Assembly (NCBI GenBank): GCA_019236395.1
Contig: JAFAJB010000068.1
Coordinates: forward strand, 1-41,776
Reading direction: 5' to 3'
From: Cupriavidus sp.
GTDB taxonomy: Bacteria; Pseudomonadota; Gammaproteobacteria; Burkholderiales; Burkholderiaceae
Length of the DNA stretch: 41,776 nt
Positions 11,664 to 13,706 of the stretch are shown one piece after another (position 1 is the stretch's first letter; every line of letters starts with the position of its first letter). A program made the translations under genes and the position numbers. Under the pieces are notes generated by a model. It made no database searches, was not told the origin of the DNA, and worked only from the letters and a program-made list of their open reading frames with translations.

Positions 11664-13706
11664 TTACGCTGAGTCGTGATCGACGCCAGAACCTGAGCCC
11701 CCAATACGCCAGTACAACTCCAACCCAGTTGGCGGATCTTCACCCTTGCGAATCCCGCGCGATGGCATACGGTTCAATCGGTTTGCCTCCGGGCTTTCGG
11801 AATCAAGCCGGTTTGCGCAGCGGCATAGAAACTGTTTGATCTGTCGATTCAGCGTGATGGGGCTCAAGGGCTGGTTGTCGGTGCGATGGACCACTTTCGC
11901 CCACGGTGCAAAGTCGCGTGGGGCGGCCCCAACAAACAGCAATTCGTCACGGCAAAGAGCGGGATCGTCAGGCAGGCCTCTCGCTTGAAGCGCCGTCTGC
12001 AGGGTCCCTGCAATCTTCTCGGAAATTTCGGAGAATCGCGGGACTCCATGCTTGCCGTGGACGGCGAGTATCCACTGTGGCGCATTACCTGGTGCGCGCT
12101 GCACACAGCGGACGTCTCCGACGCGCAAGGCAAGTGCTTGGGATAGCGGGATACCCGTTTCATACAACAGGGGCAGAAGCAGTTGCAACCGGCGGTTGAC
12201 GAGGGTGTCGGGCAAGGTCGCGAGGCAATCGGCAATGTGTGTCCATTCTGCTTCCGTCATTCGCGAAGCGGGAGGCTCCGGGGATTTGGGAGTGCGGCGC
12301 AGCAAGCCCTTCCAAGGGTTGCCGGCCATGTACCCGTTGTCATTGAGCCATGTGTAGAGGGCACAGAGCACCGTGATCGTAGTGCGCTGGGAGTGCTGAG
12401 TGAGTGGTCCCTGGAACGGCCGCCACAGCGGGGTCCAGCGCTCCCGCTGGCCAGGGCCGCACCAACTCGCAGGCGGGCTCGCGACAAAAGCCAGATATGT
12501 CACACAGTCGTCCAGCGCCATAGATGACAAGGCCTTCTGTCTCACGAGAATCGCCCAGAGAAGGAACCGTTCGGCCTCTTTCCGGTACGCGCGTTGCGTA
12601 TTTGAGGGATACAGCGCCCACTGCGTGGGGTCAGGCACCGTCGACAGGTCATTGTGGAACGCGTGTCGGCGTTGCAACTGTTCGGGGGAGATCGAACTCC
12701 GCGTGCCCAGCCAAAGCACGATCGCTTCCTTGTCGGTGACGGAAGGAATCTTGCATTGGCGCCTGGGGAGCCGAAATTTGCCGTCGTGCCCATCGAGTTC
12801 CATCGGGACAACGAGCCTCTCAAGAGGCACGAGTGCCGTAGCTGGGGCCACCATGCGTTCCCGCTCGTGTGCGTACTGGCGTTGTTTGGGAACCTCGGCT
12901 AGGGCCAGTATTGGCTTGCCGATCGTATCCGCGTGAGCGCGAAGAAATCCAATGATGGCCCTGGCTTTGCCGGCGCCGATGCCGGAAATGGAGCGATGCC
13001 AGCCCAGCCCCAGACCGTTGATCCGGTCGATCAGATCCGAGATCGTAACTATGTTGGCGACTTCCAGCCGATACGCCAAACTGTCTGACAGCCATGCGCC
13101 GCACGGATCCGAAGCCTTGACCCGTTGCACGTATCGGGCTTCCAGCCAGGCGATCGCCTTGAGTTGCAGATTCACCAGGGTTTGCCGTTTGGCCTCCAGA
13201 TCGGCAGCGACCCCATACCGTTCGCGGTAGGCCGCAAGTTGTTCTGCCTCGCTGAAGCCATCAAGGCCCTGTTGTGCCACAAACTCTTCCAGCGGCAACA
13301 AGCCGTCACTTCGAGGGGCAATCACCGAGAAATCCGACCTGATCAGCCGGATCATCCCGGGTCGCTGTGACCGACGAGCCGCACCGCAGATTTCTTGCCG
13401 TAGCCACGCCGTCGTGCGCTGTACAGTAGGATGCAGAGCAAACGCGTGAGGTTGGTCACCGGCGATACAAGTGTCCTTCGTGCGTCCTGTACCGGCGGCC
13501 GTGGCTGACTTGTAGATGTCCGTTTCGATCCGGCCTTCTTCCTGAAGGTAACGCTCCCACACGGAACGTGCGCACAGTCCCTGGACGATTGCACGGAAGA
13601 ATGCGAAATGCCCTCGGTGTAGCTGCCGCCTGGTCACCGCTCGTTTGCGGCTATCTGCGGGGCGCTTCTCAGCACCGACCTCAACCTCCGGTGAAAATCC
13701 TTCCAT
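11664..13706 (-). CDS. DUF3701/phage-integrase-repeat type tyrosine recombinase homologue lacking catalytic C-terminus (680 aa)
   Basis: N-terminal HRGHFAFFRAIVQGL...RINGLGLGWHRSISGIGAGKARAIIGFLRAHA and core RLQLLLPLLYETGIPLSQALALRVGDV; expected box I Arg is replaced (GIPLSQ) and no HxxR/Tyr block is present before the stop. Confidence 0.8.
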   Translation of the reverse strand: MEGFSPEVEVGAEKRPADSRKRAVTRRQLHRGHFAFFRAIVQGLCARSVWERYLQEEGRIETDIYKSATAAGTGRTKDTCIAGDQPHAFALHPTVQRTTAWLRQEICGAARRSQRPGMIRLIRSDFSVIAPRSDGLLPLEEFVAQQGLDGFSEAEQLAAYRERYGVAADLEAKRQTLVNLQLKAIAWLEARYVQRVKASDPCGAWLSDSLAYRLEVANIVTISDLIDRINGLGLGWHRSISGIGAGKARAIIGFLRAHADTIGKPILALAEVPKQRQYAHERERMVAPATALVPLERLVVPMELDGHDGKFRLPRRQCKIPSVTDKEAIVLWLGTRSSISPEQLQRRHAFHNDLSTVPDPTQWALYPSNTQRAYRKEAERFLLWAILVRQKALSSMALDDCVTYLAFVASPPASWCGPGQRERWTPLWRPFQGPLTQHSQRTTITVLCALYTWLNDNGYMAGNPWKGLLRRTPKSPEPPASRMTEAEWTHIADCLATLPDTLVNRRLQLLLPLLYETGIPLSQALALRVGDVRCVQRAPGNAPQWILAVHGKHGVPRFSEISEKIAGTLQTALQARGLPDDPALCRDELLFVGAAPRDFAPWAKVVHRTDNQPLSPITLNRQIKQFLCRCANRLDSESPEANRLNRMPSRGIRKGEDPPTGLELYWRIGGSGSGVDHDSA

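What the first reader, a model, noticed from the sequence alone, without database searches (positions are those of the whole stretch)
11664..13706. Apparently catalytically dead tyrosine recombinase next to a TnsB-TnsC-TniQ module: candidate target selector
Seen: the 680-aa protein has the DUF3701/phage-integrase-repeat architecture, but the box I motif reads ETGIPLSQALALRVGDV (the usual GLRxSE Arg is Pro). The protein stops before any HxxR or Tyr-nucleophile block, and its last ~45 aa resemble nothing in the family. Its stop lies 8 bp from the tniQ-like stop on the opposite strand. Established: in Tn6022-like Tn7 relatives, TnsF carries an inactivated tyrosine recombinase domain and directs insertion into comM. 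Inference: this may be an independent co-option of a different recombinase subfamily as a DNA-binding target selector.
Basis: partly seen in the sequence, partly recalled or inferred. Interest (0 to 1): 0.85.

Follow-up and report, generated by a model that had tools for sequence, protein, structure and literature searches.

The report
Dead recombinase aboard a Tn7-like transposon
A jumping-gene unit in a Cupriavidus bacterium carries a DNA-cutting-and-rejoining enzyme that has lost its cutting half, and related units insert beside the DNA sites of such enzymes or fuse a dead copy to their targeting protein, so the dead enzyme probably helps choose where the unit lands.

Summary
The 680-aa protein is a DUF3701 (TnpR-type) tyrosine recombinase (YR) with Arg-I changed to Pro and no HxxR/Tyr half. 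Its stop lies 8 bp from the tniQ stop. A second, 91-92% identical element keeps the same dead protein and the same TniQ, apparently on one contig. Its substitutions are as conservative as those of intact recombinases. The gene seems to lie inside the transposon: homology to the uninterrupted chromid locus resumes at 13988, beside a TGTCG end, about 55 bp from a conserved site upstream of another, parAB-linked DUF3701 protein.

The new context is family-wide. In eight related TnsB-TnsC-TniQ elements the TniQ-side end lies 46-53 bp from a palindromic YR core site, so this clade hunts tyrosine-recombinase sites, much as Tn5053 hunts serine-resolvase res sites. In Pandoraea and one further genome, TniQ is fused to a dead YR, beside or near a dif-like site.

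Against it: most relatives hunt YR sites without a YR of their own, the gene is convergent with tniQ, the left end is not in the contig, and there is no binding or transposition data.

The parts
11664..13706 (-). dead DUF3701/TnpR-type tyrosine recombinase, 680 aa: N-terminal helices, helix-hairpin-helix (~188-275), core-binding domain (~366-480), first half of the catalytic domain (~481-650), unrelated tail
9892..11655 (+). TniQ-like target-selection protein, 587 aa, divergent
8856..9932 (+). TnsC/TniB-like AAA ATPase (true start may be internal)
7010..8950 (+). TnsB/TniA-like transposase, 646 aa, probable DDE residues conserved
6334..6768 (+). XRE-type HTH regulator upstream of tnsB, probably element-borne
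13707..13990 (.). AT-rich (40% GC) right-end region; inward reading starts TGTCGCAGGAATTAG
13776..13805 (+). 30-bp direct repeat copy 1 (70% to copy 2; 1% of shuffles as good), candidate TnsB-binding site
13943..13972 (+). 30-bp direct repeat copy 2, ending 18 bp from the presumed right tip
13988..14359 (.). target DNA: upstream region of the parAB-linked dead YR (Rec550) of Cupriavidus chromids, matching L095 7028-7402 at 83% (13988-14119) and 76% (14277-14359)
14037..14056 (+). conserved site GTGCAATGTAAATTATTTTT upstream of Rec550 genes; its 15-bp core occurs (up to 1 mismatch) in 37 of 61 Cupriavidus genomes, 0 for the reversed control

Best explanation
The gene is a tyrosine recombinase of the plasmid/transposon-resolvase type (DUF3701, TnpR subgroup) that has lost catalysis and is carried by a TnsB-TnsC-TniQ transposon with no TnsA found, between tniQ and the right end. 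This transposon clade inserts beside recombination/segregation sites of tyrosine recombinases. Most members probably recognise the site, or the recombinase bound to it, through TniQ alone. In this element the dead recombinase probably acts as an extra DNA-binding subunit that occupies YR-type sites and, with TniQ and TnsC, marks the insertion point; a related lineage has the same two parts fused in one protein. Shown: the loss of catalysis, the conserved pairing with TniQ in a second element, the site preference of eight relatives, and the TniQ::dead-YR fusions near dif-like sites. Inferred: that this protein binds the target site, contacts TniQ or TnsC, and is needed for targeting.
For: Same dead protein and same TniQ in a second element. 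Of 57 substitutions between the two proteins, mean BLOSUM is +0.12 against -0.60 for random changes (P=0.0004) and no stop where 3.1 are expected; substitutions avoid conserved positions in the HhH (P=0.035) and core-binding (P=0.048) domains but not in the catalytic remnant (P=0.61). Intact recombinase pairs of similar identity behave the same. Right end next to a conserved YR-linked site: homology to the uninterrupted locus L095/L131 resumes at 13988. Eight related elements have their TniQ-side end 46-53 bp from the centre of a palindromic core; the core lies within 600 bp of the tniQ end in 8 of 17 loci of the clade at the strict pattern, against 0.026 per kb background and none within 900 bp in 13 loci of the other clade. 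TniQ::dead-YR fusions (L199, L200, L203) with Arg-I and the HxxR motif replaced and no Tyr; CGCATAATGTACATTATGTTAA lies about 14 bp from a TnsB-repeat-like end in L200 and 6.2 kb from the 37%-identical fusion L199 on the same side. Best solved-structure match of the model is XerH 5jk0, the structure that Faure et al. name for TnsF (PMC10293859).
Against: Relatives such as L038, L042 and L045, and both elements in L143, hunt YR sites with no YR of their own, so the dead YR is not required by the clade. It is convergent with tniQ, not in its operon. The site motif of its closest intact relatives (TTGATAAC-N4-CTTATCAA) was not seen next to the insertion. No terminal inverted repeat pair was found in the window, and the left end lies outside the contig. 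Only one insertion site is known for an element with this gene.
Confidence: 0.58

Rival explanations
1. Decayed resolvase or hitch-hiker: once an active YR resolving cointegrates (no TnsA was found), it lost its catalytic end and now does nothing, surviving only because the elements are young.
For: DUF3701 YRs are resolvase-type (PMC8138268). TnsA-less Tn7-like elements usually carry a serine or tyrosine resolvase (PMC8649781). Faint DNA resemblance to the lost HWMRH region persists in another frame (not tested for significance).
Against: Two elements 8-9% apart keep the ORF, with conservative changes and no stops. Truncated DUF3701 proteins are maintained next to parAB in nine Cupriavidus loci.
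Confidence: 0.17
2. Regulator or structural protein: the dead YR binds the element's own right end (its promoter lies inside that end) or a resolution site, controlling expression, end synapsis or target immunity rather than choosing targets.
For: The gene starts about 280 bp inside the presumed right end, which holds repeats and a TTGATAA sequence like a half-site of the Rec700 core (sequence at about 13885-13895).
Against: Fusion of dead YRs to TniQ in relatives points to the targeting complex.
Confidence: 0.15
3. Ordinary neighbour: the recombinase belongs to the target replicon and was truncated by the transposon's right end just after tniQ.
For: In relatives the right end lies 93-134 bp after tniQ, and family similarity of the protein stops about 105 bp after the tniQ stop.
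Against: No inverted repeat there and no recombinase C-terminus elsewhere in the window. It leaves the 13988 junction unexplained. Mapped relatives have their right end facing a YR core site, not inside a YR 3' end.
Confidence: 0.1

Closest known systems
TnsF of Tn6022-like Tn7 transposons (Faure et al. 2023, PMC10293859)
   Same: Inactivated YR with a core-binding domain and a partial catalytic domain, beside TniQ, proposed to bind the attachment site; XerH is the nearest solved structure in both cases
   Different: No N-terminal zinc fingers but a DUF3701/HhH region; convergent with, not operonic with, a longer TniQ; no TnsA or TnsE found; target is a YR-linked site, not comM
Tn5053/Tn402 res-site hunters (Minakhina et al. 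1999, cited in PMC11406308)
   Same: TniA/TniB/TniQ-type module without TnsA; single TniQ; inserts next to sites of site-specific recombinases
   Different: Targets here are tyrosine-recombinase cores (palindrome, 6-bp spacer), not serine-resolvase res sites; no serine resolvase; this element carries a dead YR
TnpR subgroup of tyrosine recombinases (DUF3701; Tn4401 TnpR; PMC8138268)
   Same: Same domain architecture; closest intact relatives are ~700-aa Cupriavidus plasmid proteins, ~48% identical
   Different: Arg-I changed to Pro; HxxR and Tyr half missing
TniQ::dead-YR fusion in Pandoraea eparura and P. cepalis TnsB-TnsC loci (found here, L200/L203 = L228/L230)
   Same: Dead YR physically coupled to TniQ, next to a dif-like site
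   Different: Fused; catalytic domain full length but without catalytic residues; TnsB more distant

Membership tests
TnsF | Inactivated YR with core-binding domain and partial catalytic domain | tested here: met
TnsF | N-terminal multiple zinc fingers | tested here: not met
   Pfam finds DUF3701 only
TnsF | Operon with a short TniQ | tested here: not met
   convergent, TniQ 587 aa
TnsF | Targets comM | tested here: not met
   right flank is a chromid Rec550 upstream region
TnsF | Required for transposition, binds TniQ and the target | not testable with these tools
   needs experiment
Tn5053/Tn402 | TnsB/TniA-TnsC/TniB-TniQ core without TnsA | tested here: inconclusive
   core met; no TnsA seen beside tnsB, but the left part of the element is not in the contig
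Tn5053/Tn402 | Serine resolvase TniR and its res | tested here: inconclusive
   no serine resolvase among the window ORFs examined, but it was not searched for as a family and the left part of the element is missing
Tn5053/Tn402 | Insertion beside resolution sites of recombinases | tested here: met
   eight relatives 46-53 bp from YR cores; window about 55 bp from a YR-linked site
Tn5053/Tn402 | Inverted repeats and 5-bp target duplication | tested here: inconclusive
   repeats mapped in relatives; left end missing in the window
TnpR-type active resolvase | R-K-HxxR-H/W-Y catalytic set | tested here: not met
   only Lys kept

The most novel reading that the evidence does not exclude
A clade of TnsA-less Tn7-like transposons hunts the core sites of tyrosine recombinases (plasmid/chromid resolvases, dif), and at least twice took up a dead tyrosine recombinase as targeting subunit: once as a free protein (this window) and once fused to TniQ (Pandoraea). 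The recombinase's own DNA recognition would then be used to aim the transposon at such sites.
Probability: 0.5. Interest if true: 0.85.

Novelty: new variant of a known kind. Interest (0 to 1): 0.74.

Why it matters
Target selection is the main unknown for Tn7-like elements and the part that engineers most want to reprogram. TnsF was one case of a dead recombinase steering a transposon. An unrelated subfamily doing the same, plus a fusion to TniQ and a clade-wide preference for YR/dif-like sites, would make this a repeated route: an element whose target is a recombinase site borrows the recombinase itself. It would also suggest that at least some tyrosine 'resolvases' counted as parts of TnsA-less transposons (PMC8649781) are in fact the target's own gene, lying outside the transposon ends.

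Tried and rejected
Right end just after tniQ, truncating a neighbour: no inverted repeat with the left side and no recombinase C-terminus elsewhere in the window.

Finding the left end: TGT candidates (3418, 5993, 6180) and a matrix built from relatives' repeats gave nothing above chance. It probably lies beyond the contig start, since no Rec550 gene appears on the left.

Calling the Rec550 site a dif: best match to E. coli dif 14/28, 44% of shuffles as good, and the Rec550 proteins themselves lack the catalytic end, so I call it only a conserved YR-linked site.

Rfam found nothing in 4000-15600. Putative TnsA of the sister clade was read by eye; Pfam does not confirm it. A fusion search in 400 Burkholderiales genomes found recombinase matches only, so the fusion is rare. 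The core motif of Rec700 (closest intact relatives) was not found with the first pattern search; it was seen by reading upstream regions.

Full report
WHAT IS THERE. The window is contig C176 of a 54% complete genome of the genus Cupriavidus: two 'same genus' records have the contig lengths of Cupriavidus sp. EM10 and C. metallidurans CH34 replicons. On the - strand at 11664-13706 lies a 680-aa DUF3701 protein. Against 46 full-length relatives its box I has Pro for Arg, and nothing after about residue 650 aligns, so HxxR, H/W and Tyr are gone; only Lys remains. DUF3701 recombinases are the TnpR subgroup, with a helix-hairpin-helix motif thought to bind DNA (PMC8138268). The AlphaFold model (pLDDT 79) matches Xer/Cre recombinases, XerH 5jk0 first, at low coverage.

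NOT AN ACCIDENT. The nearest protein, P0001, is 92% identical with the same Arg-to-Pro change and tail. The nearest TniQ, P0127 (91%), has the same longest contig, 18,820 bp, so the pair most likely recurs together in a second element. The 57 substitutions are conservative (mean BLOSUM +0.12, random -0.60, P=0.0004), no stops arose, and they avoid conserved positions in the HhH and core-binding domains but not in the catalytic remnant. Intact recombinase pairs of similar identity score alike. The individual domain tests are weak (P of 0.035 and 0.048); the DNA of the second element was not available for dN/dS.

INSIDE THE TRANSPOSON. L095 and L096 show an uninterrupted locus: parA, parB, a 530-aa DUF3701 protein on the - strand (here Rec550), then a conserved site. 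Window 13988-14359 is that upstream region and 34391-41773 its continuation (84.6%), with a 20-kb sugar island between. To the left of 13988, where Rec550 should start, there is instead 284 bp of AT-rich DNA with two 30-bp repeats and a TGTCG tip, then the dead recombinase. I read 13990 as the right end. The left end is not in the contig. The site's 15-bp core is found in 37 of 61 Cupriavidus genomes (reversed control 0) and sits just upstream of a DUF3701 recombinase gene in 26 of 30 loci looked at, the window among them.

A CLADE THAT HUNTS TYROSINE-RECOMBINASE SITES. The window's TnsB groups (100/100) with elements that show no TnsA, apart from a sister clade (the window's own branch is long). 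Inverted repeats were mapped in L038, L039, L042, L044, L045 and both elements of L143. They enclose TnsB-TnsC-TniQ and sometimes cargo, and no YR. Outside the TniQ-side end stands a palindromic core (for example AGACATAA-GCGCAG-TTATGTCT), with the recombinase gene on the other side of the element or just beyond the core. Distances from end to core centre: 53, 51, 48, 48, 50, 46, 46 and 48 bp in L037, L038, L042, L045, L046, L143b, L146 and L044. The presence of the core at the other end of the element in the YR436 loci was predicted before it was looked for. L143 has two elements in tandem at one such site. In 17 loci of the clade the strict core pattern occurs within 600 bp of the tniQ end 8 times; background is 0.026 per kb, and 13 loci of the other clade have none within 900 bp. 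The window's own distance is about 55 bp. YR436 genes without an element are common in Cupriavidus. This parallels Tn5053 hunting of res sites (PMC11406308), here for tyrosine recombinases; I found no paper that reports it, within an open-access library.

DEAD RECOMBINASES AS PARTS. Two further facts bear on function. First, all nine Rec550 proteins examined also stop before HxxR and Tyr, at the same place as the window protein: half-length DUF3701 proteins are stable, presumably as DNA binders. Second, in L199, L200 and L203 (L200 and L203 match Pandoraea eparura and P. cepalis) TniQ is fused to a recombinase domain without Arg-I, HxxR or Tyr. A dif-like site CGCATAATGTACATTATGTTAA lies about 14 bp from a repeat-bearing end in L200, beside a similar end in L203, and 6.2 kb from the 37%-identical fusion of L199 on the same side.

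JUDGEMENT. A dead YR joined to TniQ and a clade aimed at YR sites make a targeting role the best reading for the free dead YR here (0.58). It stays an inference: relatives do without it, it is not operonic with tniQ, one insertion site is known, and no binding was tested. It resembles TnsF in kind but fails three TnsF features, so I do not file it as TnsF.

Noticed in passing
L095 5365-6954 and L096-L103: Rec550: DUF3701 proteins next to parAB in Cupriavidus chromids/plasmids, all lacking the catalytic C-terminal half, with a conserved AATGTAAATTATTTT site upstream; perhaps segregation proteins made from a recombinase.
   Followed up: partly
L199 3442-6240, L200 3405-6212, L203 2910-5717 (all - strand): TniQ fused to a catalytically dead tyrosine recombinase in TnsB-TnsC loci beside or near a dif-like site (L200/L203 are Pandoraea).
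   Followed up: partly
L143 8143-18132: Two different TnsB-TnsC-TniQ elements inserted in tandem at one YR436 site.
   Followed up: yes
L061-L073, L105, L106: HNH endonuclease gene directly upstream of full-length ~700-aa DUF3701 recombinases on Cupriavidus plasmids, with a conserved TTGATAAC-N4-CTTATCAA site further upstream.
   Followed up: partly
window 6070-6163 and 7462-7555: Exact 94-bp copy of an internal tnsB stretch lying upstream of the XRE gene; recent duplication or assembly artefact.
   Followed up: no
window 14360-34390: 20-kb sugar-catabolism/ABC-transporter island inserted between the Rec550 site region and the pstS-side DNA; 14956-27835 matches Cupriavidus basilensis plasmid pRK1-2.
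   Followed up: partly
L054 7189-8156: Broken relative of the window's TnsB (51% in the best piece) starting about 240 bp from a Rec550 site, on the side away from Rec550.
   Followed up: partly
window 637-2126: IS-like element (transposase ORF 816-1691) that is 85-95% identical to copies in many Cupriavidus genomes.
   Followed up: no
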